Position numbers and translations under genes: made by a program. This document shows positions 10,301 through 44,318 of a stretch of 64,000 bases of DNA, piece after piece (positions within the stretch are counted from its first letter, which is position 1; each line of letters opens with the position of its first letter). The stretch covers positions 4,224,501-4,288,500 of the forward strand of contig RHDP01000001.1 of the NCBI GenBank assembly GCA_003725745.1, written 5' to 3'. Origin of the DNA: Streptomyces sp. I6 (GTDB taxonomy: Bacteria; Actinomycetota; Actinomycetes; Streptomycetales; Streptomycetaceae). The notes beneath the pieces were generated by a model that searched no databases, was not told the DNA's origin, and saw only the letters and a program-made list of their open reading frames with translations.

Positions 10301-10312
10301 CTACGCGCGTTA
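10301..10312. promoter_or_regulatory. Putative nucleoside-regulon operator (degenerate copy)
   Basis: CTACGCGCGTTA differs from the palindrome CTACGCGCGTAG in the last two bases and lies 62 nt before the BMP lipoprotein start. It is the weakest of five copies in the window; the other four are perfect and also precede nucleoside genes. Operator function is inferred. Confidence 0.6.
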
Positions 10313-10374
10313 CGATCGCCGCAAAACCAGCGCCGGAAGTGGCGCTTTCGGTCAGGTTTATAAGGAGCCTCTCA

Positions 10375-11421
10375 GTGCGCCGGATCACCAGGATCGCCAC
10401 CGTGGGCATAGCGTCCGCGGCTCTCGCGCTGTCCGCCACCGCGTGTGGCGGCAAGACCTCGTCCGAGGCCGGCTCGGACGGTGGTACCAAGGCGGCCATC
10501 GCCTACGACATCGGCGGCCGCGGCGACCAGTCGTTCAACGACGCCGCCTACGCGGGCCTCGCCAAGGCCGAGAAGGAGCTCGGTGTCAAGGGCACCGAGG
10601 CCGAGCCCAGCGAGGGCGAGGCGGACCCGGACAAGGTCCAGCGCCTCACGTCGCTGGCCCGCGCCGGGAACAACCCGGTGATCGGCGTCGGCTTCGCCTA
10701 CGCTCCGGCCATCGCCGAGGTCGCTCCGAAGTTCCCGGACACCACCTTCGGTCTCATCGACGACACCTCCAAGACCGGCAAGAACATCGCCAACCTGGTC
10801 TTCAACGAGGAGCAGGGCTCGTACCTGGCCGGTGTCGCCGCCGCCAAGGTGACGAAGTCCAACACCGTCGGCTTCATCGGCGGCGTCGAGACCCCGCTGA
10901 TCAAGAAGTTCGAGGCGGGCTACGTCCAGGGCGTCAAGGACACCAACAAGGACGTCAACGTCAAGGTCCAGTACCTGACCCAGCCGCCGGACTTCGGTGG
11001 CTTCTCCAAGCCGGACCTCGGCAAGGCCGCGGCACAGGGTCAGCTCGACGCCGGTGCCGACGTGATCTACGCCGCCGCCGGTCTCGCGGGCTCCGGCTCG
11101 ATCGAGGCGGCCGCCAAGGCCAAGAAGTGGGCCATCGGCGTCGACTCGGACCAGTACAACCAGCAGGGCCTGGCCGCGTACAAGGACTTCATCCTCACCT
11201 CGGTGACGAAGGACGTCTCGGACGCCGTCTTCAACCTCATCAAGTCGGTCGAGGACGGCAAGCCGCAGTCCGGTGAGATCCGCTACGGCCTGGACAAGGA
11301 CGGCGTGGGCCTGGCCACCTCCAACCCGGCCTTCACCAAGATGACGGACGTCGTCGCCGCGGTCGACAAGGCGAAGGCCGACATCATCGCCGGCAAGATC
11401 GAGGTCAAGTCCGCTCCGTAA
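10375..11421 (+). CDS. BMP-family nucleoside-binding lipoprotein
   Basis: A 348-residue substrate-binding lipoprotein of the BmpA/Med family, which delivers nucleosides to an ABC importer. GTG 10375 has an excellent AAGGAG site 7 nt upstream. The signal peptide ends in LALSATAC, with the lipidated Cys at residue 24; Ala replaces the usual Leu at -3. The mature domain has the family segments AIAYDIGGRGDQSFNDAAYAGL, VIGVGFAYAPAIAEVAPKFPDTTFGLID, NIANLVFNEEQGSYLAGVAAA and VIYAAAGLAGSGSIEAAAK. It is followed by a terminator-like stem and then the ATPase and permease genes, so it is probably made in excess of the membrane components. A degenerate copy of the nucleoside palindrome precedes it. Confidence 0.93.
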   Translation: MRRITRIATVGIASAALALSATACGGKTSSEAGSDGGTKAAIAYDIGGRGDQSFNDAAYAGLAKAEKELGVKGTEAEPSEGEADPDKVQRLTSLARAGNNPVIGVGFAYAPAIAEVAPKFPDTTFGLIDDTSKTGKNIANLVFNEEQGSYLAGVAAAKVTKSNTVGFIGGVETPLIKKFEAGYVQGVKDTNKDVNVKVQYLTQPPDFGGFSKPDLGKAAAQGQLDAGADVIYAAAGLAGSGSIEAAAKAKKWAIGVDSDQYNQQGLAAYKDFILTSVTKDVSDAVFNLIKSVEDGKPQSGEIRYGLDKDGVGLATSNPAFTKMTDVVAAVDKAKADIIAGKIEVKSAP

Positions 11422-11440
11422 CCGAGCGGCCCGATCCGAT

Positions 11441-11491
11441 GGTCCCCGGGTCCGGGAGGGCAGCGCGAGCCGCCCTTCCGGACCCCGGACC
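11441..11491. terminator. Long imperfect stem between lipoprotein and ATPase genes
   Basis: GGTCC...GTCCGGGAGGGC (11441-11461) pairs with GCCCTTCCGGAC...GGACC (11472-11491) to give a stem of about 18-20 bp with one mismatch or bulge. A partial terminator here would let the binding protein be made in excess over the ATPase and permeases, as is usual in ABC operons. Confidence 0.6.
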
Positions 11492-11526
11492 GGGTTCTGG
11501 CCGTCGGTTTTCGCTATTCGCGACCG

Positions 11527-11538
11527 CTACGCGCGTAG
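11527..11538. promoter_or_regulatory. Putative nucleoside-regulon operator
   Basis: A perfect CTACGCGCGTAG palindrome lies 104 nt before the ATPase gene and after the lipoprotein terminator. This suggests that the ATPase-permease-cdd-deoA unit has its own regulated promoter. Confidence 0.7.
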
Positions 11539-11642
11539 AGCCCCTGTGGGCGAGGTAACTTCGCCCCACTCCCTGCCCGCGACACCCTCGTGGCGTCCGC
11601 CCTGCCCACTGCTTCTCGCTCCTTCCCCGCCAAGGAGAGTGC

Positions 11643-13214
11643 GTCATCAACGCGTCCAGTCCGTCAACGCCGCCGGCTGTAGAACTGCGCGGCATCACCA
11701 AGCGCTTCCCCGGCGTCGTCGCCAACCACGACATCGACATCACCATCGGCAAGGGCACGGTCCACGCCCTCGTCGGTGAGAACGGTGCCGGCAAGTCGAC
11801 CCTGATGAAGATCCTCTACGGCATGCAGAAGCCGGACGAGGGGACGATCACGATCGACGGCAGGCAGGTCGGCTTCCACAGCCCGGCCGATGCCATCGCG
11901 GCCGGCATCGGCATGGTCCACCAGCACTTCATGCTGGCGGACAACCTCACCGTGCTCGAGAACGTCGTGCTCGGCGGCGAGAAGCTGTACGGGATCGGGG
12001 CGAAGGCCCGCGACAAGATCAGGGAGATCTCCGACGCGTACGGGCTGAACATCCGCCCCGACGTCCTGGTCGAGCAGCTCGGTGTCGCCGACCGCCAGCG
12101 CGTCGAGATCCTCAAGGTGCTCTACCGCGGCGCCCGCACCCTCATCCTCGACGAGCCGACCGCGGTGCTGGTGCCGCAGGAGGTCGAGGCGCTCTTCGAT
12201 AACCTCCGCGAGCTCAAGGCCGAGGGCCTGACCGTCATCTTCATCTCCCACAAGCTGGGCGAGGTGCTCTCGGTGGCCGACGAGATCACCGTCATCCGCC
12301 GCGGCACCACCGTCGGTACCGCCGACCCGCGCAGCACCACCCCGAAGCAGCTCGCCGAGCTGATGGTGGGAAGCGAGCTGCCCTCGCCGGAGACCCGCGA
12401 GTCGACCGTGACCGATGTGCCGATGCTGGACGTCGACGGGCTGCGGCTGACCGCGACCGACCCCGACGGTGTCGTCCGCGAGGTCCTCGACGGCATCTCC
12501 CTCACCATCCACAAGGGCGAGGTCATGGGCATCGCCGGTGTCGAGGGCAACGGCCAGACCGAGCTCATCGAGGCGCTGATGGGCATGCGCGACCCCGACG
12601 GCGGCGTCATCACCCTCGACGGGACGGACATCTCGCACGCCCCGACCCGCAAGCGCCGCGAGGACGGCATCGGGTACATCCCCGAGGACCGCCACCGCCA
12701 CGGACTGCTGCTCGAGTCGCCGCTCTGGGAGAACCGCATCCTCGGCCACGTCACCGAGCGGCCCAACAGCGTCAAGGGCCTGCTCGACCTCAGGGCGGCC
12801 CGCAAGGACACCGAGCGGATCGTCCGCGAGTACGACGTCCGCACCCCCGGCATCGAGGTCACGGCCGCGTCCCTGTCCGGCGGCAACCAGCAGAAGCTGA
12901 TCGTCGGCCGCGAGATGAGCCACCACCCCAAGCTGCTGATCGCCGCCCACCCCACGCGGGGCGTGGACGTCGGCGCGCAGGCGCAGATCTGGGACCAGAT
13001 CCGCGAGGCACGGCGGGAGGGCCTGGCGGTGCTGCTGATCTCCGCCGACCTGGACGAGCTGATCGGGCTCTCCGACACCCTGCGGGTGATGTACCGCGGC
13101 CGGCTGGTCGCGGACGCCGACCCCGCCACGATCACCCCCGAGGAGCTGGGTTCGGCCATGACCGGCGCCGCCACCGGCCACCTCGAGCACAACGAGAACG
13201 GTGAGGGCCGATGA
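11643..13214 (+). CDS. Nucleoside ABC transporter ATPase, two ABC domains
   Basis: A duplicated ABC ATPase of about 523 residues, RbsA/NupA-like. The N-terminal domain has Walker A GENGAGKST, a Q-loop region (VHQHFMLADNLTV) and Walker B LILDEPTAVL. The C-terminal domain has a degenerate Walker A (GVEGNGQTE), signature LSGGNQQK and a Walker B variant LLIAAHPTRGVD in which Ala replaces the Glu. The coding frame clearly includes VINASSPSTPPAVELRGITKRFPGVVANHDI, but no ATG, GTG or TTG lies in frame between the stop at 11556 and the Walker A motif. AAGGAG at 11632-11637 points to GTC 11643 or ATC 11646 as the start, or to a sequence error. It overlaps the next gene by ATGA. Confidence 0.9.
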   Translation, partial: VINASSPSTPPAVELRGITKRFPGVVANHDIDITIGKGTVHALVGENGAGKSTLMKILYGMQKPDEGTITIDGRQVGFHSPADAIAAGIGMVHQHFMLADNLTVLENVVLGGEKLYGIGAKARDKIREISDAYGLNIRPDVLVEQLGVADRQRVEILKVLYRGARTLILDEPTAVLVPQEVEALFDNLRELKAEGLTVIFISHKLGEVLSVADEITVIRRGTTVGTADPRSTTPKQLAELMVGSELPSPETRESTVTDVPMLDVDGLRLTATDPDGVVREVLDGISLTIHKGEVMGIAGVEGNGQTELIEALMGMRDPDGGVITLDGTDISHAPTRKRREDGIGYIPEDRHRHGLLLESPLWENRILGHVTERPNSVKGLLDLRAARKDTERIVREYDVRTPGIEVTAASLSGGNQQKLIVGREMSHHPKLLIAAHPTRGVDVGAQAQIWDQIREARREGLAVLLISADLDELIGLSDTLRVMYRGRLVADADPATITPEELGSAMTGAATGHLEHNENGEGR

Positions 13215-14320
13215 AGAAGTTCGACAAGGACCGGCTGCTCCTCGGCATCGCCGGCCCGGGTCTCGCCCTGGTCGTGGCGTTCCTGCTCACCTCCGTGGTG
13301 CTGCTCGTCTCGGACCGCGACCCGATCGAGCCGTACCGCCTGATGTTCCAGACGGCCGAGTTCACGGACGTCCAGGTCAACATCATCAACCAGGCCGGTA
13401 CGTACTACCTCGCCGCGCTCGCCGTGGCCGTCGGCTTCCGGATGAACCTGTTCAACATCGGTGTGGACGGCCAGTACCGCCTCGCCGTGATGCTCGCCGC
13501 CGTCGTCGGCGCGTCCGTCGAACTGCCCGGCCCCCTGCACATCCTGCTGATCGTGATCGTCGCCATGCTGGTCGGGGCGCTCTGGGCCGGTATCGCCGGA
13601 ATCCTGAAGACCACCCGCGGGGTCAGCGAGGTCGTCTCCACGATCATGCTCAACGCGATCGCCACCAGCCTGATCGCCTGGATGATCCTCCCCGCCAACC
13701 TCGGCGAGCAGCTGCCCGGCTCGAACGACCTGACCACCGGCGAGATCGCCGAGTCCGGCTGGTTCCCGGGCCTGGCGATGGAGGGCGGCACCATCTACGG
13801 CTTCACCCTCGTGGCCTTCGCCCTCGGCATCGTCTACTGGTTCACGCTCAACCGCACCCGCTTCGGCTTCGACCTGCGCGCCACCGGTGCCAGCGAGTCC
13901 GCGGCGCAGGCGAGCGGTGTCGACTCCAAGAAGATGGTCCTCACCGCCATGCTGATCTCGGGCGCGGTGGCCGGTCTCGTCGGCATGCCGCTGCTGCTGG
14001 GCCAGACCCACACGTACAGCCTGAGCTTCCCGGCCGGCGTCGGCTTCACCGGCATCACCATCGCCCTGCTGGGCCGCAACAACCCGATCGGCATCTTCTT
14101 CGCCGCGCTCCTCATCTCCTTCATCGAGAAGACCTCGGCCGACCTGGACCAGTTCGGCTACGAGAAGGAGATCGCGACGATCATGCAGGGACTCATCGTG
14201 ATCTCGGTCGTCGTGTCCTACGAACTCGTCCGCCAGTACGGGCTCCGCCGCCAGCAGCAGAAGGTCGGCGAGGAACTCGCCGCCCAGGCCCGCAGGAACA
14301 AGGAAGAGGTTGCGCTGTGA
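13211..14320 (+). CDS. Nucleoside ABC transporter permease 1
   Basis: A 369-residue integral membrane protein of the BPD_transp_2 family (branched-chain amino acid/ribose/nucleoside type). Hydrophobic segments occur throughout, for example LLLGIAGPGLALVVAFLLTSVVLLV near residue 10, ILLIVIVAMLVGALWAGIAGIL, and AMLISGAVAGLVGMPLLLGQ. The GVSEVVSTIMLNAIA segment is typical of permeases paired with BMP lipoproteins. It begins inside the ATPase stop (ATGA) and its own stop overlaps the start of a small reading frame (GTGA) leading to permease 2, so the operon is tightly coupled. It forms the membrane channel with the second permease. Confidence 0.92.
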   Translation: MKKFDKDRLLLGIAGPGLALVVAFLLTSVVLLVSDRDPIEPYRLMFQTAEFTDVQVNIINQAGTYYLAALAVAVGFRMNLFNIGVDGQYRLAVMLAAVVGASVELPGPLHILLIVIVAMLVGALWAGIAGILKTTRGVSEVVSTIMLNAIATSLIAWMILPANLGEQLPGSNDLTTGEIAESGWFPGLAMEGGTIYGFTLVAFALGIVYWFTLNRTRFGFDLRATGASESAAQASGVDSKKMVLTAMLISGAVAGLVGMPLLLGQTHTYSLSFPAGVGFTGITIALLGRNNPIGIFFAALLISFIEKTSADLDQFGYEKEIATIMQGLIVISVVVSYELVRQYGLRRQQQKVGEELAAQARRNKEEVAL

Positions 14321-14445
14321 GTGACGCGCGCGCGGCCGCCGGGCCGCAGACGACGACGAAGGCCGCGGCCCTGCGCCGCGGGAGCGGAGAACGGGTCACC
14401 GCCCAGGCGTCAGCGCCGGGGGAGAACGAAATGAGGACGGCATGA
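14317..14445 (+). CDS. Possible 42-residue linking reading frame
   Basis: GTG 14317 overlaps the permease 1 stop (GTGA), and the frame closes with a TGA that overlaps the permease 2 start (ATGA, 14442-14445). It encodes a hydrophilic Ala/Thr/Arg-rich peptide, MSDARAAAGPQTTTKAAALR and so on. It may be translated only to couple the two permease genes, or it may be a frame-shifted N-terminal extension of permease 2. No recognisable domain. Confidence 0.35.
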   Translation: MSDARAAAGPQTTTKAAALRRGSGERVTAQASAPGENEMRTA

Positions 14446-15713
14446 GCGAGTCCACGAGCACGGTCTCGATGACGAGCACCGCGCCCCGGAAGGGCGGTGG
14501 ACGCCCCACGCTGTCGCTGCCCGTCATCCTGCTGGTCATCGCGGCCGGTCTCGCGCTGTTCTCGCTGGTCCGCGTGATCAGCGGAGCCAACGACCTGACC
14601 TCGGTCGGCCAGGTCTCCGGAGCCCTCCAGCTGGCCGTCCCGATCGGCCTCGCCGGACTCGGCGGCCTGTGGGCCGAGCGGGCCGGTGTGATCAACATCG
14701 GCCTCGAGGGCATGATGATCATGGGCACCTGGTTCGGTGCCTGGGCGGGGTTCCAGTGGGGCCCCTGGACCGGTGTCCTGATGGGCGTCGTCGGCGGCGC
14801 GCTCGGCGGCCTGCTGCACGCGGTCATGACGGTGACGTTCAACGTGAACCACATCGTCTCGGGTGTCGCCATCAACATCCTCGCCGTCGGCGTCACCCGC
14901 TACCTGTCGAACTTCACCTTCGCCGAGGAGCCCGGCGGCTCCTCGAAGCAGTCCCCGCGCATCGACCAGATCCCCGAGATCACCATTCCCGGGCTCTCGG
15001 AGGCGCTGGCGGACCTCCAGGCCAAGCACTGGTTCTTCGTCTCCGACCTGGCGGGCGTGCTCGGCGGCCTGGTCACCGACCTGTCCCTGCTGACGGTCAT
15101 CGCGCTGCTGCTGGTGCCCGCCACCTGGTGGATCCTGTGGCGCACCGGCTTCGGCCTGCGGCTGCGGTCCTGCGGTGAGAACCCCGTCGCCGCCGAGACC
15201 CTCGGCGTCAACGTCTACAAGTACAAGTACATCGCGGTGATCGCCTCCGGCGCGCTGGCCGGACTCGGCGGCGCCTTCCTCGTGATCGTCTCCACCGGCA
15301 TCTACCAGGAGGGCCAGACCGGAGGCCGCGGCTACATCGGTCTCGCCGCGATGATCTTCGGCAACTGGATGCCGGGAGGAATGGCGCTCGGAGCCGGACT
15401 GTTCGGCTTCACCGACAGCCTCAAGCTGCGCGGCGGCGCCGAGAACGTCCACGCCATGCTTCTGCTGCTGGCGATCCTGCTGGTGCTGGCCTTCGCCTGG
15501 CAGCTGTACAAGAAGAAGTACTGGCAGGGCGCGATCTCCCTCGCCGTCTCCGGCATGCTCTTCGTCTGGTACGGGTTCACCGACGCGCTGCCCAGCCAGT
15601 TCGTGGACGCCGCTCCCTATGTCACCACCCTCCTGGTCCTCGCGCTGTCGGCGCAGCGCCTCAGGCCGCCGAAGGCCGACGGCCAGCCGTACAAGAAGGG
15701 GCAGGGCAAGTGA
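14442..15713 (+). CDS. Nucleoside ABC transporter permease 2
   Basis: A 423-residue polytopic BPD_transp_2 permease, partner of the protein at 13211. It has a Ser/Thr-rich cytoplasmic N-terminus, then LSLPVILLVIAAGLALFSLVRVI, WAERAGVINIGLEGMMIMGTWFGAW (a conserved segment in this family), VNHIVSGVAINILAVGVTRYL, GENPVAAETLGVNVYKYKYIAVIASGALAGLGGAFL and GRGYIGLAAMIFGNWMPGGMALGAGLFG. The C-terminal basic tail follows a hydrophobic stretch (YVTTLLVLALSAQRL). Its stop overlaps the cytidine deaminase start by GTGA, tying import directly to catabolism of the imported cytidine. Confidence 0.92.
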   Translation: MSESTSTVSMTSTAPRKGGGRPTLSLPVILLVIAAGLALFSLVRVISGANDLTSVGQVSGALQLAVPIGLAGLGGLWAERAGVINIGLEGMMIMGTWFGAWAGFQWGPWTGVLMGVVGGALGGLLHAVMTVTFNVNHIVSGVAINILAVGVTRYLSNFTFAEEPGGSSKQSPRIDQIPEITIPGLSEALADLQAKHWFFVSDLAGVLGGLVTDLSLLTVIALLLVPATWWILWRTGFGLRLRSCGENPVAAETLGVNVYKYKYIAVIASGALAGLGGAFLVIVSTGIYQEGQTGGRGYIGLAAMIFGNWMPGGMALGAGLFGFTDSLKLRGGAENVHAMLLLLAILLVLAFAWQLYKKKYWQGAISLAVSGMLFVWYGFTDALPSQFVDAAPYVTTLLVLALSAQRLRPPKADGQPYKKGQGK

Positions 15714-16293: not shown

Positions 16294-17570
16294 ATGGACG
16301 CCATCTCCGTCATCCGCACCAAGCGCGACCGAGGCGAACTCTCCCCCGAGCAGATCGACTGGGTCATCGACGCGTACACCCGCGGCGAGGTCGCCGACGA
16401 GCAGATGTCGGCCCTGGCGATGGCGATCCTGCTCAACGGCATGAACCGTACCGAGATCGCCCGCTGGACCGCCGCGATGATCGCGTCCGGCGAGCGCATG
16501 GACTTCTCGTCGCTGTCCCGCCCGACCGCCGACAAGCACTCCACCGGCGGCGTGGGCGACAAGATCACGCTTCCGCTGGCACCGCTGGTCGCCGCCTGCG
16601 GCGCCGCCGTGCCGCAGCTGTCCGGCCGCGGCCTCGGCCACACCGGCGGCACCCTCGACAAGCTGGAGTCCATCCCCGGCTGGCGGGCGCTGCTGTCCAA
16701 CGAGGAGATGCTGCGGGTCCTCGACACCACCGGTGCGGTCATCTGCGCCGCGGGCGACGGGCTCGCCCCCGCCGACAAGAAGCTCTACGCGCTGCGCGAC
16801 GTCACCGGCACGGTCGAGGCGATCCCGCTGATCGCCTCCTCGATCATGTCCAAGAAGATCGCCGAGGGCACCGGCTCGCTCGTGCTGGACGTGAAGGTGG
16901 GCTCCGGCGCCTTCATGAAGAACGTCGAGGACGCCCGGGAGCTGGCCTCCACCATGGTCGGCCTCGGCACGGACCACGGCGTGAAGACCGTGGCGCTGCT
17001 CACGGACATGTCCACGCCGCTCGGTCTCACCGCGGGCAACGCCCTGGAGGTCCGCGAGTCCGTCGAGGTGCTGGCGGGCGGCGGCCCCGCCGACGTCGTC
17101 GAGCTGACCCTCGCGCTGGCCCGCGAGATGCTCGACGCGGCCGGCGTCAGGGACGCCGACCCGGCGAAGGCCCTGGCCGACGGTTCGGCGATGGACGTCT
17201 GGCGCCGCATGGTCGCCGCGCAGGGCGGCGACCCGGACGCCGCGCTCCCGGTCGCCCGCGAGCAGCATGTGATCACGGCACCGGCCTCGGGCGTGCTGAC
17301 CCGCCTCGACGCCTACCAGGTCGGCGTCGCGGCCTGGCGCCTGGGCGCCGGCCGGGCCCGCAAGGAGGACCCCGTGCAGGCGGGCGCGGGCGTCGAGCTG
17401 CACGCCAAGCCCGGCGAGGAGGTCACCGAGGGCGCCCCGCTGATGACCCTGCACACGGACACCCCGAGAAGTTCGACTACGCCCTGCGGTCCCTGGAGGG
17501 CTCCTTCGGCATCGCCGCACCGGGCACCGCCCACGAGGCGACCCCGGTGGTGCTGGAGCGCATCGCCTGA
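16294..17570 (+). CDS. deoA: Thymidine phosphorylase, frameshifted near the 3' end
   Basis: Pyrimidine-nucleoside phosphorylase (nucleoside phosphorylase/glycosyltransferase family II) that releases thymine or uracil and pentose-1-phosphate. ATG 16294 begins MDAISVIRTKRDRGELSPEQIDWVIDAYTRG. Phosphate-binding KHSTGGVGDK, SGRGLGHTGGTLDKLESIPG and KKIAEGTGSLVLDVK are intact. Near 17462-17470 the frame is lost: ACACCCCGAGAAG should be ACACCCCGGAGAAG (TPEKFDYAL). With one G restored, the protein continues SLEGSFGIAAPGTAHEATPVVLERIA and stops at 17568-17570, 425 residues in all. Uncorrected, a wrong frame runs on to 17616. The deletion looks like one of a series of assembly indels in this window. 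Confidence 0.93.
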
Positions 17571-17582
17571 TCCGGGCGGGTT

Positions 17583-17618
17583 CGTCACCCGTCCCCGAGG
17601 TCTTCCGGGGCGGTGACG
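17583..17618. terminator. Terminator after deoA
   Basis: CGTCACC...CCCCG (from 17583) pairs with CGGGG...GGTGACG (to 17618) around the loop AGGTCTTC, 12 nt after the corrected deoA stop. It probably ends the nucleoside importer/catabolism operon. Confidence 0.65.
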
Positions 17619-21940: not shown

Positions 21941-21966
21941 ACCTCGAAGGTAGGCGCGGCCTTTTG

Positions 21967-21981
21967 ATGCGTCCAATGCAT
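21967..21981. promoter_or_regulatory. LysR-type T-N11-A box between divergent genes
   Basis: ATGCGTCCAATGCAT at 21967-21981 is an inverted repeat (ATGC/GCAT) of the T-N11-A form bound by LysR-type regulators. It lies in the short gap between the MFS gene (start 21940) and the regulator (start 22003), where it could control both. Confidence 0.6.
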
Positions 21982-22002
21982 AGAACGGCTTTAATCGTTC
22001 CC

Positions 22003-24478: not shown

Positions 24479-24490
24479 CTACGCGCGTAG
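24479..24490. promoter_or_regulatory. Putative nucleoside-regulon operator
   Basis: A perfect CTACGCGCGTAG palindrome ends 16 nt before the adenosine deaminase ATG. Bound protein would overlap the transcription start or block ribosome loading, which suggests repression. Confidence 0.72.
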
Positions 24491-24506
24491 GGAATAGAGT
24501 GCGGAG

Positions 24507-25694
24507 ATGACGAGCCAGACACCCCACGCGTCCTCCGGGGGAAGCGCCCCCGGGCACCAGGGGCCCACCGCGGACCAGATCCGCCGCGCCCCCAAGGTTC
24601 TTCTGCACGACCACCTCGACGGCGGGCTGCGCCCCGGCACGGTCATCGACCTCGCCCGTGCCGTCGGCTACGACGCCCTGCCCGAGACCGAGCCGGACAA
24701 ACTCGGCGTCTGGTTCCACGAGGCAGCCGACTCCGGCTCGCTGGAACGCTATCTGGAGACGTTCGCGCACACCTGTGCCGTCATGCAGACCCGGGAGGCC
24801 CTCAAGCGCGTCGCCGTCGAGTGCGCCGAGGACCTGGCCGAGGACGGCGTCGTCTACGCCGAGGTGCGCTACGCGCCGGAGCAGCACCTCGAAGCGGGGC
24901 TCACCCTGGAAGAGGTCGTCGAGGCCGTCAACGAGGGATTCCGGGAGGGGGAACGCCGGGCCCGGGCCAACGGCCACCGCATCCGGGTCGGCGCCCTGCT
25001 GACCGCCATGCGGCACGCCGCCCGGGCGCTGGAGATCGCCGAGGTCGCCAACCGCTACCGCGACGAGGGTGTCGTGGGCTTCGACATCGCGGGCGCCGAG
25101 GCCGGCTACCCGCCCACCCGCCACCTCGACGCCTTCGAGTACCTCAAGCGGGAGAACAACCACTTCACGATCCACGCCGGGGAGGGGTTCGGGCTGCCGT
25201 CCATCTGGCAGGCCCTCCAGTGGTGCGGCGCCGACCGGCTCGGCCACGGCGTCCGCATCATCGACGACATCGAGGTCGCCGCCGACGGCGGTGTGAAGCT
25301 GGGACGGCTGGCGGCGTACGTCCGGGACAAGCGCATCCCGCTGGAGCTGTGCCCGACGTCCAATCTGCAGACCGGCGCGGCGTCCTCCTACGAGGAGCAC
25401 CCCATCGGGCTGCTGCGCCGACTGCACTTCCGGGCCACCGTCAACACGGACAACCGGCTGATGAGCAACACGAGCATGAGCCGTGAGTTCGAGCTGCTGA
25501 CCGGGACGTTCGGCTACACGCTCGACGACATGCAGTGGTTCACCGTCAATGCGATGAAGTCGGCGTTCATTCCTTTTGATGAGCGGCTCGCGATGATCAA
25601 TGATGTCATCAAGCCGGGATACGCCGAACTCAGGTCCGAGTGGCTCTTCCAGCAGACGGCCACGACCAGCGGTTCCGGCTCCGAACAGGGCTGA
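24507..25694 (+). CDS. add: Adenosine deaminase
   Basis: A 395-residue zinc-dependent adenosine deaminase converting adenosine and deoxyadenosine to inosine and deoxyinosine. Motifs: [16 protein letters not shown] (zinc His-x-His), [13 protein letters not shown] (zinc His and catalytic Glu), [10 protein letters not shown] (catalytic His) and [17 protein letters not shown] (zinc Asp-Asn pair of this clade). The N-terminus has about 25 extra Ser/Gly-rich residues. ATG 24507 is preceded by GGAG and by the CTACGCGCGTAG palindrome. Product inosine is a substrate for the purine nucleoside phosphorylase at 43473, which carries the same palindrome. Confidence 0.96.
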
Positions 25695-33800: not shown

Positions 33801-34436
33801 TTACACCGTCTCCCCGGCGGGGACGCGGCAGCTGCCCGCCGTGGCGGCGGCGAGGCGGACGAGTGCCTCGTCCGCGGCGCAGGGGTGGGCGCCGAGTGCC
33901 GCCTGGCGTGCGACGATGCCGCGTTCCGCGCGCATCAGCCGCCAGCCGCGCCGGAGCAGGAAGGGCACGGACTTGCGGCTTTCACGCAGATCCCGCACCA
34001 GGCGGCGCCGGAAGGTCGTCGAGGGCCGTCCGCGCAGGCACAGGGCATCCGCGAGGAGGCCGAGCCGCCGGCAGCGGTCCGCGATGTCCGCGGCGAAGAT
34101 GCCCTCCGCGACGAAGAGCGGGGTGCGGGAGATGTCGACGGTCTCACGGCCGGTCCGCGAGCTGGTGGCGATGTCGTACACGGGGACCGTGGTCCGCCCC
34201 GTGCGGCACAGTTCGGCGACCGCGCGGACCGCGGCGTCGGCGTCCCAGGAGGCCGGGGAGTCCCAGTCGACGGCCGTGGTGCCCGCCATCAGCGGGAGGC
34301 TCGGGTCGTCCCCCTCCTTGTAGAAGTCGTCGAGGCGCAGCACCGGGAGGCCGGAGCGGGCGGCGAGGGACGATTTTCCGGAACCGGAGGGCCCGGACAG
34401 CAGGACGACGCGCGTCGGCGGGGGTTGGGAACTCAC
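33801..34436 (-). CDS. Uridine-kinase-like P-loop protein
   Basis: A 211-residue P-loop kinase of the uridine/cytidine kinase type: RVVLLSGPSGSGKSSLAAR (Walker A), LPVLRLDDFYKEGDD (the conserved DDFYK motif that positions the acceptor), DWDSPASWD, VPVYDIATSSRTG and TPLFVAEGIFAAD. The lid region RGRPSTTFRRRLVRDLRESRKS follows. GTG 34436 gives MSSQPPPTRVVLLSG. It would phosphorylate uridine or a related nucleoside using ATP or GTP, which would fit the nucleoside theme, but no CTACGCGCGTAG palindrome precedes it. The actual substrate is not certain. Confidence 0.82.
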   Translation of the reverse strand: MSSQPPPTRVVLLSGPSGSGKSSLAARSGLPVLRLDDFYKEGDDPSLPLMAGTTAVDWDSPASWDADAAVRAVAELCRTGRTTVPVYDIATSSRTGRETVDISRTPLFVAEGIFAADIADRCRRLGLLADALCLRGRPSTTFRRRLVRDLRESRKSVPFLLRRGWRLMRAERGIVARQAALGAHPCAADEALVRLAAATAGSCRVPAGETV

Positions 34437-35174: not shown

Positions 35175-36089
35175 TCAGTAGCCGGAGCCGGAGGCCCCCA
35201 GCGAACCCGTCGGGTGCCAGACCGTCTTGGTCTCGAGGAAGGCCGTCAGCCGGTCCGTGCCGGGCTCGGCCGTCCAGTCCTCCGCGCGGCGACGCAGCAC
35301 CCGCTTGAGGTTGTCCGCGGCGGCGACCTCCAGCTCGGTGGCGAGCTGCGCCTCGGCCCCGGTGAGGTCGATCGCGTTGACGTCCTGGTGCGCGGCCAGC
35401 GGGGCGGCGATCTCCGCCGTGCGGCCGGACAGGATGTTGACCACTCCGCCGGGGAGGTCGGACGTGGCCAGCACCTCGCCGAGCGACAGCGCCGGCAGCG
35501 GCGCCCGCTCCGAGGCGACGGCCACGACCGTGTTGCCCGTCGCGATCGCGGGGGCGATCACCGAGACCAGCCCGAGGAAGGACGACTCCTGCGGGGCGAG
35601 CACGGCGACGACACCGGTCGGCTCGGGCGTCGACAGGTTGAAGTACGGGCCCGCCACCGGGTTCGCCCCGCCGGCGATCTGGCCGATCTTGTCCGTCCAG
35701 CCCGCGTACCACACCCAGCGGTCGATCGCGGCGTCCACCGCCGCGCCCGCCTTGGACTTGGACAGGCCCTCGGCGCCGGCCACCTCGCGGACGAACTGCT
35801 CCCTGCGGCCCTCCAGCATCTCCGCTACGCGGTAGAGGACCTGGCCCCGGTTGTAGGCCGTCGCGCCCGACCAGCCGCCGAACGCCTTGCGCGCGGCGAC
35901 GACCGCGTCACGGGCGTCCTTGCGTGACGACAGCGGCGCGTTGGCCAGCCACTTTCCCTTGCCCGCCGCGCCGGCGGCTGATGTCGCTGCGGTCACCTCG
36001 TACACCCGGCCGCTCTCGCTGCGGGGGAACTTGCCCCCGACGTACAGCTTGTAGGTCTTGAAGACGGACAGACGCGTCGGCTCAGACAT
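35175..36089 (-). CDS. Non-catalytic aldehyde dehydrogenase-like partner
   Basis: A 304-residue protein with the ALDH N-terminal/NAD-binding fold only: FKTYKLYVGGKFPRSESGRVYEV, RKDARDAVVAARKAFGGWSGATAYNRGQVLYRVAEMLEGR, FNLSTPEPTGVVAVLAPQESSFLGLVSVIAPAIATGNTVVAVASE and NILSGRTAEIAAPLAAHQDVNAIDLTG. It ends where the catalytic domain should begin, so the catalytic Cys and the general-base Glu are absent. It overlaps the full-length ALDH gene by 8 nt (ATGTCTGA). The pair resembles a split ALDH16, in which one of two fused ALDH domains is inactive. It is probably a structural or regulatory subunit of the neighbouring enzyme. Confidence 0.82.
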   Translation of the reverse strand: MSEPTRLSVFKTYKLYVGGKFPRSESGRVYEVTAATSAAGAAGKGKWLANAPLSSRKDARDAVVAARKAFGGWSGATAYNRGQVLYRVAEMLEGRREQFVREVAGAEGLSKSKAGAAVDAAIDRWVWYAGWTDKIGQIAGGANPVAGPYFNLSTPEPTGVVAVLAPQESSFLGLVSVIAPAIATGNTVVAVASERAPLPALSLGEVLATSDLPGGVVNILSGRTAEIAAPLAAHQDVNAIDLTGAEAQLATELEVAAADNLKRVLRRRAEDWTAEPGTDRLTAFLETKTVWHPTGSLGASGSGY

Positions 36090-37529
36090 CGAGGTAGGCC
36101 TCCAGACCGTGGCGGCCGCCCTCGCGGCCGAAGCCCGACTCCTTGTATCCGCCGAAGGGCGAGGTCGGGTCGAACTTGTTGAAGGTGTTCGCCCACACGA
36201 CACCCGCGCGGAGCTTGTTCGCCACCGCGAGGATGCGGGAGCCCTTCTCCGTCCAGATGCCGGCGGACAGGCCGTACGGGCTGTTGTTGGCCTTGGCGAC
36301 GGCCTCGTCCGGTGTCCGGAACGTCAGCACCGACAGCACCGGGCCGAAGATCTCGTCACGGGCGATGGTGTGGGCCTGGGTGACGTTGGTGAACAGCGTC
36401 GGGGCGAACCAGTAGCCGGCCGACGGCAGCTCGCACGGAGCCGTCCAGCGCTCGGCGCCCTCCGCCTCACCGGTCTCGGCGAGGGCCGTGATCCGGGCCA
36501 GCTGCTCGGCCGAGTTGATGGCGCCGATGTCGGTGTTCTTGTCCAGCGGGTCGCCGAGGCGCAGGGTCGACAGCCGCCGCTTGAGGGAGTCCAGCAGCTC
36601 GTCGTGGACCGATTCCTGGACGAGGAGGCGGGAGCCCGCGCAGCAGACCTGGCCCTGGTTGAAGAAGATGCCGCCGACGATGCCCTCGACGGCCTGGTCG
36701 ACGGGGGCGTCGTCGAAGACGATGTTGGCGCCCTTGCCGCCCAGCTCCAGCGTGAGCTTCTTGTCCGTGCCCGCGACCTCGCGGGCGATGGCCTTGCCGA
36801 CCCCGGTGGAACCGGTGAAGGCCACCTTGTTCACGTCCGGGTGGGCGACGAGCGCCGCGCCCGCGTCGCCGTAGCCGGGGACGATGTTGACGACGCCCTT
36901 GGGCAGGCCGGCCTGGCGGCAGACGTCGGCGAAGAAGAGCGCGGACAGCGGGGTGGTCTCGGCGGGCTTGAGCACCACCGTGTTGCCGGTGGCGAGCGCC
37001 GGGGCGATCTTCCACGCGAGCATCAGCAGCGGGAAGTTCCAGGGGATGACCTGGCCCGCGACGCCGAGCGGCTTCGGGTCGGGCCCGTACCCGGCGTGGC
37101 CGAGCTTGTCCGCCCAGCCCGCGTAGTAGAAGAAGTGCGCCGCGACCAGCGGGAGGTCGGCGTCGCGGGTCTCCCTGATCGGCTTGCCGTTGTCCAGCGT
37201 CTCCAGGACGGCGAACTCGCGCGAGCGCTCCTGGATGATCCGGGCGATGCGGAAGAGGTACTTGGCGCGCTCGGAACCCGGCAGCGCGGACCACTTCGCG
37301 AACGCCCTGCGCGCCGCCCCCACCGCGCGGTCGATGTCCTCGGCGCCCGCCCGGGCGACCTCGGACAGGACCTCCTCGGTGGAGGGGAGACGGTCTTGAA
37401 GACCCTCCCGTCGGCGGCGTCGGTGAACTCGCCGTCGATGAAGAGTCCGTACGACGGGGCGATGTCGACGACCGACCGCGACTCGGGCGCGGGTGCGTAC
37501 GCGAACGCCGAAAGCTTGTCCATGGTCAT
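36082..37529 (-). CDS. Aldehyde dehydrogenase, frameshifted near the N-terminus
   Basis: An NAD-dependent ALDH of about 482 residues once one base is restored. It starts MTMDKLSAFAYAPAPESRSVV and reads to FKTVSP, where the frame breaks near 37385-37392 (coding strand GTCTCCCCTCCACCGAG; one base missing after the C run). It continues in the other frame from the STEEVLSEVARAG region: VIPWNFPLLMLAWKIAPALATGNTVVLKPAE, LELGGKGANIVFDDA with the general-base Glu, NQGQVCCAGSRLLVQ with the catalytic Cys, and PFGGYKESGFGREGG. It is coupled upstream to deoC (5-bp gap) and downstream to the non-catalytic partner. It could oxidise acetaldehyde released by DeoC to acetate. Confidence 0.9.
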
Positions 37530-37534: not shown

Positions 37535-38482
37535 TCAGTCCACCGTCACGTAGTCGGGGCCGGAGTAGCGGCCGGTCGCCAGCTTCTGGCGCTGCATCAG
37601 AAGGTCGTTGAGCAGGCTGGAGGCACCGAACCGGAACCAGTGGCCGTCCAGCCAGTCCTGGCCCGCGGTCTCGTTGACGAGCACCAGGAACTTGATGGCG
37701 TCCTTGCTGGTGCGGATGCCGCCGGCGGGCTTCACGCCGACCTGTACGCCGGTCTGCGCGCGGAAGTCGCGGACGGCCTCCAGCATGAGCAGGGTGTTGG
37801 CCGGGGTCGCGTTGACGGCGACCTTTCCGGTCGACGTCTTGATGAAGTCGGCTCCGGCCATCATGCCGAGCCAGGAGGCGCGGCGGATGTTGTCGTACGT
37901 GGAGAGTTCGCCGGTCTCGAAGATGACCTTCAGCCGGGCCGGGCCGGAGGCCTCCTTCACGGCGCGGATCTCCTCGAAGACCTTCATGTAGTCGCCCGCG
38001 AGGAAGGCGCCGCGGTCGATCACCATGTCGATCTCGTCGGCCCCGGCCTCGACGGCGTCGCGGGTGTCCGCGAGCTTGACGTCCAGCGCGGCGCGGCCGG
38101 CGGGGAAGGCGGTGGCGACGGAGGCGACCTTCACGTCCGCTCCGGCCAGCGCGGCCTTGGCGGTGGCCACCATGTCGGGGTAGACGCAGACGGCGGCCGT
38201 CGCCGGCGTGGTGCGGTCGGTCGGATCGGGATGGACGGCCTTGGCGGCGAGCGCCCGGACCTTGCCCGGGGTGTCCGCGCCTTCGAGCGTCGTCAGGTCG
38301 ATCATCGAGATGGCCAGGTCGATGGCGTACGCCTTGGCCGTCGTCTTGATCGAGCGGGTGCCGAGAGACGCGGCGCGCGCTTCCAGGCCGACAGGATCGA
38401 CCCCGGGCAGCCCGTGCAGGAAGCGGCGCAGTGCGCTGTCGGACGAGGTCACGTCAGCGAATGCAGGTGCAATGGTGGGCAT
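37535..38482 (-). CDS. deoC: Deoxyribose-phosphate aldolase
   Basis: A 315-residue class I aldolase splitting 2-deoxyribose-5-phosphate into glyceraldehyde-3-phosphate and acetaldehyde. DLAISMIDLTTLEGADTPGKVRALAAKA, AVCVYPDMVATAKAAL, EIDMVIDRGAFLAGDYMKVFEEI, ADFIKTSTGKVAVNATPAN (Schiff-base Lys) and VGVKPAGGIRTSKDAIKFL (second active-site Lys) are intact. ATG 38482 or GTG 38488 are both possible. The CTACGCGCGTAG palindrome lies 19 nt upstream of the ATG. It heads an operon with the aldehyde dehydrogenase pair, linking deoxynucleoside catabolism to central metabolism. Confidence 0.95.
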   Translation of the reverse strand: MPTIAPAFADVTSSDSALRRFLHGLPGVDPVGLEARAASLGTRSIKTTAKAYAIDLAISMIDLTTLEGADTPGKVRALAAKAVHPDPTDRTTPATAAVCVYPDMVATAKAALAGADVKVASVATAFPAGRAALDVKLADTRDAVEAGADEIDMVIDRGAFLAGDYMKVFEEIRAVKEASGPARLKVIFETGELSTYDNIRRASWLGMMAGADFIKTSTGKVAVNATPANTLLMLEAVRDFRAQTGVQVGVKPAGGIRTSKDAIKFLVLVNETAGQDWLDGHWFRFGASSLLNDLLMQRQKLATGRYSGPDYVTVD

Positions 38483-38501
38483 GGTCACCAGACCAGCATA
38501 T

Positions 38502-38513
38502 CTACGCGCGTAG
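38502..38513. promoter_or_regulatory. Putative nucleoside-regulon operator
   Basis: A perfect CTACGCGCGTAG palindrome lies 19 nt before the deoC ATG (minus strand), in the 99-bp gap shared with the divergent PH-domain gene (ATG 38582). Its position favours control of deoC. Confidence 0.72.
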
Positions 38514-41568: not shown

Positions 41569-43268
41569 TCAGATCCCGGCGGCCTCCGCCAGGTCCCGCT
41601 TCACGGCCGCGAGGACCTCTGCGGCACGGGCCCGCGCGGCCGGCAGCCCGCTCGGCCCGGCGACCGGCACCACGACCTCCAGGTAGCACTTGAGCTTGGG
41701 CTCGGTGCCGCTGGGACGGACGATGACGCGGGCGTCGTACTCGCCCTCCAGGTAGTACCTCAGACCGTCCGTGGGCGGCAGTGCGCCGGAGCCCTCCGAG
41801 AGGTCCTCCGCCGACGCCACGCGCAGGCCGGCCAGTGCCGCGGGCGGCTTGTCCCGCAGCCGTCGCATGGCCTCCGCGATGACGCCCAGGTCCTCCACCC
41901 GTACCGACAACTGGTCCGTGGCGTGCAGGCCGTGGGCGACGGCGAGGTCGTCCAGCAGGTCCGTGAGGGTGCGGCCCTCGGCCTTGAGTTCCGAAGCCAG
42001 TTCGGCGACCAGCAGCGCGGCGGTGATGCCGTCCTTGTCGCGCACGCCGTCCGGGTCGACGCAGTAGCCGAGGGCCTCCTCGTAGCCGTACCGCAGGCCC
42101 TCCGCCCGGGAGATCCACTTGAAGCCGGTCAGGGTCTCCTCGTAGCCGAGGCCCGCCGTCCGGGCGATCCGGCCGAGCAGCGACGAGGACACGATCGACG
42201 TGGCGAACGTGCCGCTCGCCCCCTTCGCCGGCACGCCACCCGACGCACCGTCCGAAGCATTCGCCGACACGCCCTTGCGGACGAGGTGCGCACCGAGCAG
42301 CACGCCGACCTCGTCGCCGCGGAGCATGCGCCAGCCGCCGTCCGCGGTCTCGTCGGGGACCGCGACCGCGCAGCGGTCGGCGTCGGGGTCGTTGGCGATG
42401 ACGAGGTCCGGACCGGCCTCGCGTGCCTTCGCGAAGGCGAGGTCCATCGCGCCCGGCTCCTCCGGGTTGGGGAAGGCGACCGTGGGGAAGTCCGGGTCGG
42501 GCTCGGCCTGCTCGCCGACGAGCACGGGGGCGGGGAAGCCGGCCCGCTCCCAGGCCGCCAGCACCACGTCCGTGCCGACGCCGTGCAGGGCCGTGTGGAC
42601 CACGCGGGCCGTTCGCGGCGAGTGCGGGCTGAGGACCGCGTCGGTGCGCTCCAGATAGGACCGCAGGACCTCGTCCCGAGCGTCTCCCAGCCGCTCTCGG
42701 GACGCGGCAGGTCGTGGATGCTGCCGACCGCCTCGATCGCCGCGGCGATCCCGGCGTCGGCCGGGGGCACGATCTGCGCGCCGTCGCCGAGGTAGACCTT
42801 GTATCCGTTGTCACGCGGGGGGTTGTGGCTCGCGGTGACCTCGACACCGGCGACGGCGCCCAGGTGCCGGATCGCGAACGCGAGCACGGGTGTGGGCAGC
42901 GGGCGCGGCAGCAGCGCGGCGCGCAGCCCGGCACCGGTCATCACGGCGGCGGTGTCACGGGCGAAGTCCGCCGACTTGTGGCGGGCGTCGTAGCCGATCA
43001 CGACCAGACCGCCGGTGTGGCCCCGGGCCTTGAGGTACGCGGCCAGACCGGCCGCCGCGCGGATCACGACGACGCGGTTCATCCGCATCGGCCCGGCCCC
43101 GAGTTCGCCGCGCAGACCGGCCGTGCCGAACTGCAGCGTCCCGGCGAACCGGGCGCCCAGCTCCGCCGTGTCCCCTGCGTCGATGATCCGGGCCAGCTCG
43201 TCCCGGGTCTCCGCGTCGGGGTCCTCGGCCAGCCAGGTCCGGGCCTGCGCGATCAGGTCCTGCGCCAC
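41569..43268 (-). CDS. Phosphosugar mutase (probable phosphopentomutase), frameshifted
   Basis: A protein of about 566 residues of the alpha-D-phosphohexomutase superfamily. GTLQFGTAGLRGELGAGPMRMN and GVEVTASHNPPRDNGYKVYLGDGAQI (phospho-Ser in TASHNPP), NDPDADRCAVAVPD (metal site), GYEEALGYCVDPDGVRDKDGI (sugar loop) and RPSGTEPKLKCYLE (phosphate site) are present. The frame breaks at 42675-42677: the coding strand reads CTCGGGACGAG, expected CTCGGGGACGAG (LGDEVLRSYLERTD). An 18-residue SANASDGASGGVPAKGASG-type insertion precedes TFATSIVSSS. It lies downstream of the purine nucleoside phosphorylase gene, as pmmB lies by deoD in M. tuberculosis, so I favour pentose-1-phosphate to pentose-5-phosphate conversion over mannose metabolism. 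Confidence 0.85.
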
Positions 43269-43472
43269 GGTGATGTGCCTCTCTGAAGTCGTCGTGAGCG
43301 TGGGCGGCGCCGGTTGTGTCCCCTCCGCCTCTGCCTCCGGCGCCGGCGCCGGCGCCTGCCTGCCCGTCCCGGGCGGCGGTGGATGTCTCTGCCCCCCCCG
43401 GCCCGCCGCCCGGGCGCCGGAGCGACGCGGGGTCCGTGCCCGGCGCCGTTGCGGAGCCCGGGCGGCGACCCG

Positions 43473-44282
43473 TCAGATCCTGGCCAGTACCCGGGTCAGC
43501 AGCTCGCCCATCCGGGCCGCGGAGTCGCGTCCGGCCTGCAGTACCTCTTCGTGGTTGAGCGGCTCGCCCGAGAGCCCGGCCGCGAGGTTGGTGACCAGGG
43601 AGATCCCGAGCACCTCGGCACCGGCCTCACGGGCCGCGATCGCCTCGAGCACGGTGGACATGCCCACCAGGTCGCCGCCCATGACCCGGACCATGTGGAT
43701 CTCGGCAGGGGTCTCGTAGTGCGGGCCGGGGAACTGAACGTAGACGCCTTCCTCGAGCGTCGGGTCCACCTCCTTGCACAGCGCCCGCAGCCTCGGCGAG
43801 TACAGGTCGGTCAGGTCCACGAAGTTGGCGCCGGCGATCGGGGAGGCGGCGGTGAGGTTGATGTGGTCGCCGATCAGGACCGGCTGGCCGGGCCGCATGC
43901 CCTCGCGCAGACCGCCGCAGCCGTTGGTCAGGACGACGGTCTTGCAGCCGGAGGCGACGGCGGTGCGCACACCGTGCGCCACGGCGGCGACGCCGCGGCC
44001 CTCGTAGTAGTGCGTGCGGCCGAGGAAGACGAGTGCGCGCTTGTCGCCGATCCGGTACGAGCGGACCTTGCCGCCGTGGCCCTCGACCGCCGGGGGCGGG
44101 AAGCCGGGCAGCTCGGTGACCGGGAACTCGGCCTCGGGAGCACCGAGGGCATCGACCGCGGGCGCCCAGCCCGAGCCCATCACCAGGGCGACGTCATGGG
44201 TGTCGGCGCCGGTCAGCTCTCGCAGGCGCGCGGCCGCGGCGTCGGCGGCGGCATGGGGGTCCGGGGTAAGGGAAAGGTTCAC
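43473..44282 (-). CDS. punA: Purine nucleoside phosphorylase
   Basis: A 269-residue trimeric-type (class II) purine nucleoside phosphorylase that splits inosine and guanosine with phosphate. [17 protein letters not shown] (phosphate loop), [89 protein letters not shown] (base-binding Glu and Asn regions). GTG 44282 begins [20 protein letters not shown]. The perfect palindrome CTACGCGCGTAG lies 24 nt upstream. The phosphosugar mutase follows after 204 bp of GCCGGCG-rich sequence. It acts on inosine from Add, and its pentose-1-phosphate product would feed the mutase. Confidence 0.94.
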
Positions 44283-44306
44283 GGGAAAAGCCTAGCCTGA
44301 GAAACC

Positions 44307-44318
44307 CTACGCGCGTAG
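44307..44318. promoter_or_regulatory. Putative nucleoside-regulon operator
   Basis: A perfect CTACGCGCGTAG palindrome ends 24 nt before the purine nucleoside phosphorylase start (minus strand). No rightward gene starts nearby, so it must serve the phosphorylase-mutase unit. Confidence 0.73.

What the first reader, a model, noticed from the sequence alone, without database searches (positions are those of the whole stretch)
10301..44318. A 12-bp palindrome marks five nucleoside-salvage units: a candidate regulon
CTACGCGCGTAG occurs perfectly at 11527, 24479, 38502 and 44307, and with two end mismatches at 10301. Each lies 16-104 nt before a nucleoside gene or operon: BMP lipoprotein, ATPase-permeases-cdd-deoA, add, deoC-ALDH pair, and purine nucleoside phosphorylase-mutase. 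I saw no copy elsewhere in 64 kb. At about 72% GC, I estimate well under 0.1 perfect copies by chance. The extended form is close to YCTACGCGCGTAGR. Closeness to start codons (16-24 nt in three cases) fits a repressor. I do not know a named Streptomyces regulator for this site, although one may be catalogued in comparative-genomics collections.
Basis: partly seen in the sequence, partly recalled or inferred. Interest (0 to 1): 0.88.

Follow-up and report, generated by a model that had tools for sequence, protein, structure and literature searches.

The report
Nucleoside-purine regulon with LacI repressor
A short DNA word in front of the nucleoside-recycling genes of Streptomyces is most likely the landing site of one repressor, until now without a known job, which also appears to reach genes for taking up and breaking down nucleotides and for making purines.

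Summary
CTACGCGCGTAG occurs exactly four times in the 7.05 Mb genome, all in this cluster, each before nucleoside genes. It is in 61 of 61 same-genus and 60 of 61 same-family genomes sampled. The two-mismatch site at 10301 is not significant alone but is conserved in 12 of 12 loci, own included.
The regulon reaches further. Near-copies (one mismatch) are kept upstream of a nucleobase permease (18/18), a dihydropyrimidinase operon (14/20), two 5'-nucleotidase-like genes (7/14, 9/12) and purS (14/26); control palindromes average 0.03-0.06.
Most likely regulator: the LacI-family protein beside glnR (recalled as SCO4158). One of ten LacI helices in this genome is of that type.
All 22 Streptomyces orthologs read have His where 42 of 42 relatives with the segment have Arg, hinting at a changed effector. 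Binding, sign and effector are untested.

The parts
10301..10312 (+). Operator CTACGCGCGTTA before the BMP lipoprotein gene; its end overlaps a -10-like TACGAT at 10311-10316
   Evidence: CTACGCGCGTTA in 12 of 12 loci examined, own included; TAnnnT at the same offset in 12 of 12
11527..11538 (+). Perfect operator between the BMP gene and the ABC ATPase-permease-permease-cdd-deoA operon
   Evidence: same place in 11 other fetched loci
24479..24490 (+). Perfect operator before add; -10-like TAGAGT at 24495-24500, then 6 nt, then ATG
   Evidence: TAnnnT at +17 in 14 of 14 loci, own included
38502..38513 (-). Perfect operator before deoC; -10-like TATGCT at 38500-38495, then 6 nt, then GTG
   Evidence: TAnnnT at +14 in 4 of 4 loci, own included
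44307..44318 (-). Perfect operator before the PNP gene; -10-like TAGGCT at 44294-44289, then 6 nt, then GTG
   Evidence: TAnnnT at +25 in 20 of 21 loci, own included
10339..11421 (+). BMP/PnrA-like substrate-binding lipoprotein (nucleoside ABC importer)
   Evidence: PF02608, E 5.7e-57
11641..13214 (+). ABC ATPase of the importer; start uncertain (no ATG/GTG/TTG in frame before 11805)
   Evidence: PF00005; frames
13211..15713 (+). Two permeases (13211-14320, 14442-15713)
   Evidence: PF02653
15710..16174 (+). Cytidine deaminase
   Evidence: PF00383; NF004064 over cut-off
16294..17616 (+). Thymidine/pyrimidine-nucleoside phosphorylase
   Evidence: NF004490 over cut-off
24507..25694 (+). Adenosine deaminase
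   Evidence: PF00962; NF006847 over cut-off
37535..38488 (-). Deoxyribose-phosphate aldolase DeoC
   Evidence: TIGR00126 over cut-off
35175..37323 (-). Aldehyde dehydrogenase ORFs (36082-37323 and 35175-36203) downstream of deoC
   Evidence: PF00171
43473..44282 (-). Purine-nucleoside phosphorylase
   Evidence: TIGR01698 and NF006054 over cut-off
41569..43268 (-). PGM/PMM-type mutase (likely phosphopentomutase role, inferred from context), read in two ORFs
   Evidence: PGM_PMM_I in 42129-43268; PGM_PMM_II, III and IV in 41569-42603
46919..48229 (+). DeoR-family regulator: considered and rejected as the reader of the site
   Evidence: PF00455/PF08220; no operator-like site (up to 2 mismatches) next to it

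Best explanation
CTACGCGCGTAG (often T-flanked, TCTACGCGCGTAGA) is the operator of one LacI/GalR-family repressor, encoded outside the window at G000:C1:3073856-3074878 beside glnR (recalled S. coelicolor name SCO4158). The dimer binds inside the core promoters, over the -35 region, the spacer or the -10 depending on the gene, and so blocks RNA polymerase; several targets look leaderless. The regulon covers nucleotide and nucleoside uptake (5'-nucleotidase-like enzymes, BMP ABC importer, nucleobase permease), breakdown (add, cdd, deoA, PNP, deoC, dihydropyrimidinase operon) and a branch into de novo purine synthesis (purS-purQ, in some genera purN). Shown by comparison: the sites, their conservation, the regulator-operator pairing and the single candidate among the LacI genes of this genome. 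Inferred: binding, repression, and a purine- or nucleoside-derived effector that differs from that of the relatives.
For: Sites. Conservation: upstream of the BMP gene; 59 of 75 fetched family loci with a perfect site lie before PNP, add, deoC, the ATPase, a second adenosine deaminase or PurN. One-mismatch sites in other family genomes: NCS2 permease 18 of 18, hydrolase of the dihydropyrimidinase operon 14 of 20, 5'-nucleotidase A 7 of 14, purS 14 of 26, against 119 control palindromes averaging 0.03-0.06, largest 2; 5'-nucleotidase B 9 of 12, own included, control mean 0.04. Pairing: 39 of 119 loci with TCTACGCGCGTAGA hold a LacI gene with helix G[TV]SxAVVSYVxN; in Kibdelosporangium, Arthrobacter, Rothia and several gamma-proteobacteria the site sits before the LacI gene or its operon, with a PfkB-type kinase, an NCS1-type permease or a nucleoside hydrolase. 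Uniqueness: one of ten LacI helices over the Pfam cut-off in this genome is of that type. Orthologs at 84-100% identity in the 22 same-genus genomes listed. Promoter anatomy.
Against: No binding or expression data. The regulator is about 1.16 Mb from the main cluster. Its own promoter has only a conserved half-site (CGCGTAG, 22 of 22), which may be no more than a -10 box. G614, chosen because its LacI shares the helix, has three perfect sites, but none before an obvious nucleoside gene. At the conserved purS position 8 of 26 lack a site, and 6 of 20 hydrolase upstream regions lack one. With two mismatches allowed the controls rise (purS: mean 1.19, largest 18 of 26), so two-mismatch counts are weak. 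Eight of the 14 one-mismatch sites in the own genome have no conservation test or functional link. The three perfect sites from outside the family in the order sample lie inside ORFs. At up to one mismatch none of the seven genomes exceeds its reversed control.
Confidence: 0.88

Rival explanations
1. The DeoR-family protein encoded at 46919-48229, near the PNP gene, reads the site.
For: It is inside the cluster and DeoR-family proteins regulate nucleoside genes elsewhere (the latter half recalled).
Against: The motif has no copy next to its gene. Its best NCBIfam matches are AgaR and GlpR types below cut-off, with E. coli-type DeoR far weaker. The operator goes with a LacI helix in 39 of 119 loci from several phyla. 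PMC3224704 (passages seen) puts SCO4920, the recalled S. coelicolor counterpart, in a module with bldN, not with nucleoside genes; that module's own consensus sequence I did not see.
Confidence: 0.05
2. Another unidentified regulator (for example the LysR protein at 21964-22956 or a second LacI) binds the same word here, and the LacI match is inherited coincidence.
For: No experiment excludes it; a LysR gene lies in the cluster.
Against: The other nine LacI helices over the cut-off are of ordinary types; a 12-bp palindrome with central CG is a LacI type of operator and not a LysR type (general knowledge).
Confidence: 0.06
3. The word is not an operator but a chance or mutational feature (restriction site relic, Z-DNA-prone CGCG repeat).
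For: CGCGCG words are common in GC-rich DNA; copies with one or two mismatches are at background level.
Against: Four perfect copies all in one 33 kb stretch, conservation at orthologous promoters in other genera and fixed offsets to -10-like boxes.
Confidence: 0.01

Closest known systems
PurR regulon of E. coli and related gamma-proteobacteria (LacI family)
   Same: LacI-family global regulator that reaches purine synthesis and nucleotide genes (PMC4052901, passages seen); palindromic operator with central CG (recalled)
   Different: Not an ortholog: PurR model NF007979 scores 173 bits against a cut-off of 501; operator word differs (recalled); this one centres on uptake and breakdown, with purine synthesis as a smaller part
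CytR / DeoR control of nucleoside catabolism in E. coli
   Same: Same kinds of target: deoCABD-type genes, cdd, nucleoside import (recalled)
   Different: CytR model NF008269 scores 166 of 436 bits; E. coli splits the job between two regulators (recalled)
UriR of Corynebacterium (LacI family, uridine utilisation)
   Same: LacI-family nucleoside regulator of actinobacteria; named among local nucleoside regulators AdeR, HpxR, UriR in PMC4052901 (passages)
   Different: UriR model NF051853 scores 117 of 550 bits; UriR is local, this one spans the genome
RbsR2/RbsR3 of Bifidobacterium (ribonucleoside regulons)
   Same: LacI-family regulators of nucleoside hydrolase, ribokinase and nucleoside transporters (PMC4746261, passages seen)
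   Different: Their predicted motif is TGATAAAACGTTTTATCA, a different word
XdhR of S. coelicolor
   Same: A known purine-salvage regulator of Streptomyces, repressor of the xdh operon that answers to ppGpp (PMC6627660, passages)
   Different: TetR-type by recall; one operon; xdh was not among the genes found or looked for here
SCO4158 (LacI-family protein beside glnR)
   Same: The likely regulator itself, by gene neighbourhood (recalled name; a passage seen places sco4158 downstream of glnR)
   Different: In what I saw of the held papers it is linked to pigment production (Meng 2012, seen only as a citation) or suggested to control glnR (PMC9739823, passage), not to nucleosides

Membership tests
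LacI/GalR family (regulator) | N-terminal LacI helix-turn-helix over the Pfam cut-off | tested here: met
   PF00356 match of 56.5 bits against cut-off 27 at C1:3073874
LacI/GalR family (regulator) | C-terminal periplasmic-binding-protein-like effector domain | tested here: met
   Sequence alignment over residues 4-298 to CcpA, 5-328 to RbsR and 5-338 to PurR chains
LacI/GalR family (regulator) | Binds a palindrome with central CG | tested here: inconclusive
   The paired word has this form, but binding was not measured
PurR equivalog | Score over NCBIfam cut-off for PurR | tested here: not met
   173 bits, cut-off 501
CytR equivalog | Score over NCBIfam cut-off for CytR | tested here: not met
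   166 bits, cut-off 436
UriR equivalog | Score over NCBIfam cut-off for UriR | tested here: not met
   117 bits, cut-off 550
RbsR equivalog | Score over NCBIfam cut-off for RbsR | tested here: not met
   183 bits against 382 and 173 against 531
AVVSYV-helix LacI group (defined here by helix and operator) | Recognition helix G[TV]SxAVVSYVxN | tested here: met
   GTSTAVVSYVIN in the own genome and unchanged in the 22 same-genus loci, own included
AVVSYV-helix LacI group (defined here by helix and operator) | Common descent of the group | tested here: inconclusive
   43 rows fall on one side of a branch with support 100/99, but only five outside rows, all from the own genome, were in the tree and the tool warns of long branches
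AVVSYV-helix LacI group (defined here by helix and operator) | Effector-domain Arg three residues before the G-W/F motif | tested here: not met
   Arg in 42 of 42 non-Streptomyces rows where the segment was found (4 more had none; many rows are close relatives), His in 22 of 22 Streptomyces orthologs

The most novel reading that the evidence does not exclude
In Streptomycetaceae an ancestral local nucleoside repressor kept its DNA word but changed its effector (pocket Arg to His) and grew into a genome-wide regulator that joins nucleic-acid scavenging, pyrimidine-ring breakdown and de novo purine synthesis, with operator strength set gene by gene through conserved mismatches. It would be a missing global purine and nucleoside regulator of Streptomyces and a handle on the GTP and ppGpp supply that feeds antibiotic production.
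Probability: 0.4. Interest if true: 0.78.

Novelty: new member of a known kind. Interest (0 to 1): 0.62.

Why it matters
It gives a conserved orphan regulator a concrete, testable job and a target list. A 2019 review of purine metabolism and antibiotics in Streptomyces has no occurrence of PurR or LacI in its text and names XdhR for the xdh operon (PMC6627660, term search and passages). The same operator-helix pairing also predicts regulators for nucleoside hydrolase modules in Pantoea, Providencia, Cedecea and Pseudomonas and probably their relatives. The comparison of Arg-bearing and His-bearing members sets up a test of how a LacI protein changes its effector while keeping its DNA site.

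Tried and rejected
A literal paper search for the word gave only two DNA-structure/binding papers. Genome-wide 1-mismatch counting gave no excess over the reversed control, so it was dropped as evidence and replaced by upstream conservation. The two-mismatch copy at 34406 lies in an ORF and was set aside.

Perfect sites outside the family were flagged inside ORFs by a longest-ORF or GC-based caller and treated as chance: L165, L166, L173-L175, L363-L365 (L364 and L365 in an IMP dehydrogenase-like gene by eye). Of 20 perfect sites picked because they lie off the main cluster, L224, L232, L236, L237 and L238 have no clear link, L225-L227 and L229 precede a secreted protein, L234 a HAD hydrolase. 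Of 30 same-genus loci, five were not matched to a PNP/add/deoC/ATPase/AddB start by the automatic step: L149 only to the divergent LPD gene, L155 at a contig end beside a BMP-like gene, L161 inside an ORF, L158 before the HAD hydrolase, L156 unexplained.

G614 was a prediction from the helix alone: it has three perfect sites, but none before an obvious nucleoside gene, so it counts only half. I fetched L258, L259 and L261 around such sites and did not analyse them. A structure prediction of the LacI was not run, because the tool names DNA search and related-loci sequences and this protein came from the genome search. The TAnnnT offsets given are the best of about 100 offsets per group, chosen after looking.
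Full report
Check of the observation. The word CTACGCGCGTAG is at the four stated places and the two-mismatch copy at 10301. None of 100 dinucleotide shuffles of the window has a perfect copy; from base composition 0.007 would be expected in the window and 0.73 in the genome. With two mismatches allowed the window has 6 copies, which 29 of 100 shuffles also reach. The whole assembly (7,054,598 bases) has exactly these four perfect copies; the reversed control word occurs once. With one mismatch allowed the genome has 18 sites and the control 22, so single mismatched copies prove nothing on their own.

Genes.

Conservation of the word. It is present in 61 of 61 same-genus genomes, 60 of 61 family genomes covering 16 of 17 genera, 135 of 147 order genomes (outside the family 3 of 15, one copy each) and 14 of 296 phylum genomes (9 of these are same-genus, the other five have one copy each). 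I matched fetched perfect sites to window genes with tblastn: 59 of 75 family loci have PNP, add, deoC, the importer ATPase, a second adenosine deaminase or PurN within 400 nt downstream. Of the 75, 20 were picked because they lie off the main cluster (10 of these 20 match), and three pairs of rows are the same place. The site at 10301 is not a decayed copy: CTACGCGCGTTA is found upstream of BMP in 12 of 12 loci examined, own included, and its altered end merges with a TAnnnT hexamer in 12 of 12.

Members outside the window. One-mismatch sites in the own genome pointed to a xanthine/uracil-type permease (PF00860), two 5'-nucleotidase/cyclic-phosphodiesterase-like genes (NCBIfam matches below cut-off), purS-purQ, and an operon of a carbon-nitrogen hydrolase, a class-III aminotransferase and a dihydropyrimidinase over the NCBIfam cut-off. 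These were picked after seeing their function; the test is whether other family genomes keep a site there. From 27 genomes I fetched upstream stretches outside the own genome: all 18 with a permease hit at 67% identity or more, all 14 with 5'-nucleotidase A, all 26 purS genes, and 20 of 21 genomes' best hydrolase hits. Sites with up to one mismatch: permease 18 of 18, hydrolase 14 of 20, 5'-nucleotidase A 7 of 14, purS 14 of 26. For 119 palindromes of the same composition the mean was 0.03-0.06 regions and the largest 2. With two mismatches: 5'-nucleotidase A 14 of 14 (control mean 0.62, largest 3); purS 20 of 26 (control mean 1.19, largest 18), a weak figure that includes a CTACGCGCTGAG word lying elsewhere; at the conserved purS position the number is 18 of 26 (no control). 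For 5'-nucleotidase B, found in 12 of 29 genomes including the own, 9 of 12 have a site with one mismatch (control mean 0.04, largest 2) and 12 of 12 with two (control mean 0.45, largest 3). In other genomes perfect copies precede purN (L228, L230, L356, L366; purH-like ORF next to it in L230 by eye) and, in Streptomyces sp. TRM68367, the stretch before a purL-like ORF that should hold purS-purQ (L036, by eye). The mismatches are typical for each gene (CTACGTGCGTAG for the hydrolase, CTACGCGCGGAG for the permease), as if operator strength were set gene by gene; that is inference.

Promoter anatomy. Aligned on the operator, a TAnnnT hexamer sits at a fixed place: offset +25 for PNP in 20 of 21, +17 for add in 14 of 14, +14 for deoC in 4 of 4 and +11 for BMP in 12 of 12, own included. 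The offsets are the best of about 100 per group and the rows are related, so the percentages are not independent tests. In the window the hexamers of add, deoC and PNP are followed by exactly six bases and then the start codon. That is the layout of leaderless transcripts, and it puts the operator over the -35 region or the spacer, or onto the -10 for BMP. A bound dimer would block RNA polymerase. No such clear hexamer was found for the ATPase, permease, hydrolase, AddB and 5'-nucleotidase groups; purS shows one at +10 (61%) and +27 (67%).

The regulator. In Arthrobacter and Rothia the site lies before a PfkB-kinase gene followed by a LacI gene, in Kibdelosporangium directly before a LacI gene. 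Across all 119 loci, 39 contain a LacI gene with the helix G[TV]SxAVVSYVxN; a broader LacI pattern found no other LacI type, but that pattern misses some LacI helices. They include Pantoea, Serratia, Erwinia, Providencia, Cedecea, Pluralibacter, Pseudomonas, Bifidobacterium, Microbacteriaceae and a Chloroflexota record; many are close relatives, so the number of independent cases is smaller. In the four gamma-proteobacterial loci drawn in full (Pantoea, Providencia, Cedecea, Pseudomonas) a transporter, the LacI and a nucleoside-hydrolase-like gene stand in this order, with one more ORF between in Pseudomonas (PF01156 in the two tested). The own genome has ten LacI helices over the Pfam cut-off, and only the one at C1:3073874 has AVVSYV. 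Its orthologs are 84-100% identical in the 22 same-genus genomes listed in a 246-genome class sample (149 genomes without a match are not listed), the next best being 46% elsewhere. The neighbour upstream looks like GlnR by eye, and a paper places SCO4158 downstream of glnR (PMC9739823, passage); the identification with SCO4158 rests on that and on recall. All 22 orthologs have CGCGTAGACT just before the start codon: a half-site fused with a -10-like box.

Effector. In the sensor domain, 42 of 42 non-Streptomyces members with the segment found have Arg three residues before the G-W/F motif (four more had no segment), while 22 of 22 Streptomyces orthologs have His. In the alignment to RbsR the His stands opposite an Arg, which I recall as matching the sugar-contacting Arg197 of LacI. 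This suggests a changed effector. Which ligand is unknown. One sign for both uptake/breakdown and purine synthesis would fit a supply signal such as PRPP or a purine base; this is speculation.

Known work. Ravcheev 2014 (PMC4052901, passages) lists PurR as the global LacI purine regulator of three gamma-proteobacterial orders, and AdeR, HpxR and UriR among five local nucleoside groups; I could not open its supplement, and AdeR could in principle be a member of this group. The regulator scores below the NCBIfam cut-offs for PurR, CytR, RbsR and UriR. Seven held papers name SCO4158 (listing); in passages of two and one table row of a third it is not tied to nucleosides, the other four I did not open. 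Searches listed no paper that describes this regulon by title or abstract start; the library lacks most subscription journals and RegPrecise itself.

Verdict. The finding is real and larger than reported. Regulon and operator are well supported by comparison; the regulator assignment is strong; repression, leaderless starts and effector are predictions.

Noticed in passing
window 41569-43268 (-): The PGM/PMM-type mutase is split over two ORFs in different frames (domain I in one, II-IV in the other): a frameshift in the assembly or in the gene.
   Followed up: no
window 11541-11805 (+): The importer ATPase reading frame has no ATG, GTG or TTG before 11805, although domain-like residues start well upstream: a rare start codon or a sequence error.
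   Followed up: partly
L221, L222, L223, L233, L235: In five genomes a perfect operator lies at codons 3-7 of a second adenosine deaminase as called; the true start may be further in.
   Followed up: partly
L225, L226, L227, L229: In four genomes of one genus a perfect site lies about 40 nt before a secreted-looking protein (Pfam putative Ig domain in the one tested, L225) with no evident nucleoside role.
   Followed up: partly
L158 and L234: A perfect site lies 16 nt before a similar HAD-family hydrolase gene in two loci; possibly a nucleotidase.
   Followed up: partly
G000:C1:1349142-1349167: Two one-mismatch operators in tandem, 14 bp apart, before 5'-nucleotidase A; tandem copies recur in L300, L304 and L306.
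   Followed up: partly
L088 (Microbacteriaceae): A LacI with helix TSTAVVSYVINNGPRPV as in Streptomyces stands divergent to another ORF with a perfect site between them; a second perfect site precedes an NMT1/THI5-type substrate-binding protein gene.
   Followed up: partly
L057, L065, L080, L082: Transporter-LacI-nucleoside hydrolase modules under the same operator word in Pseudomonas, Providencia, Pantoea and Cedecea.
   Followed up: partly
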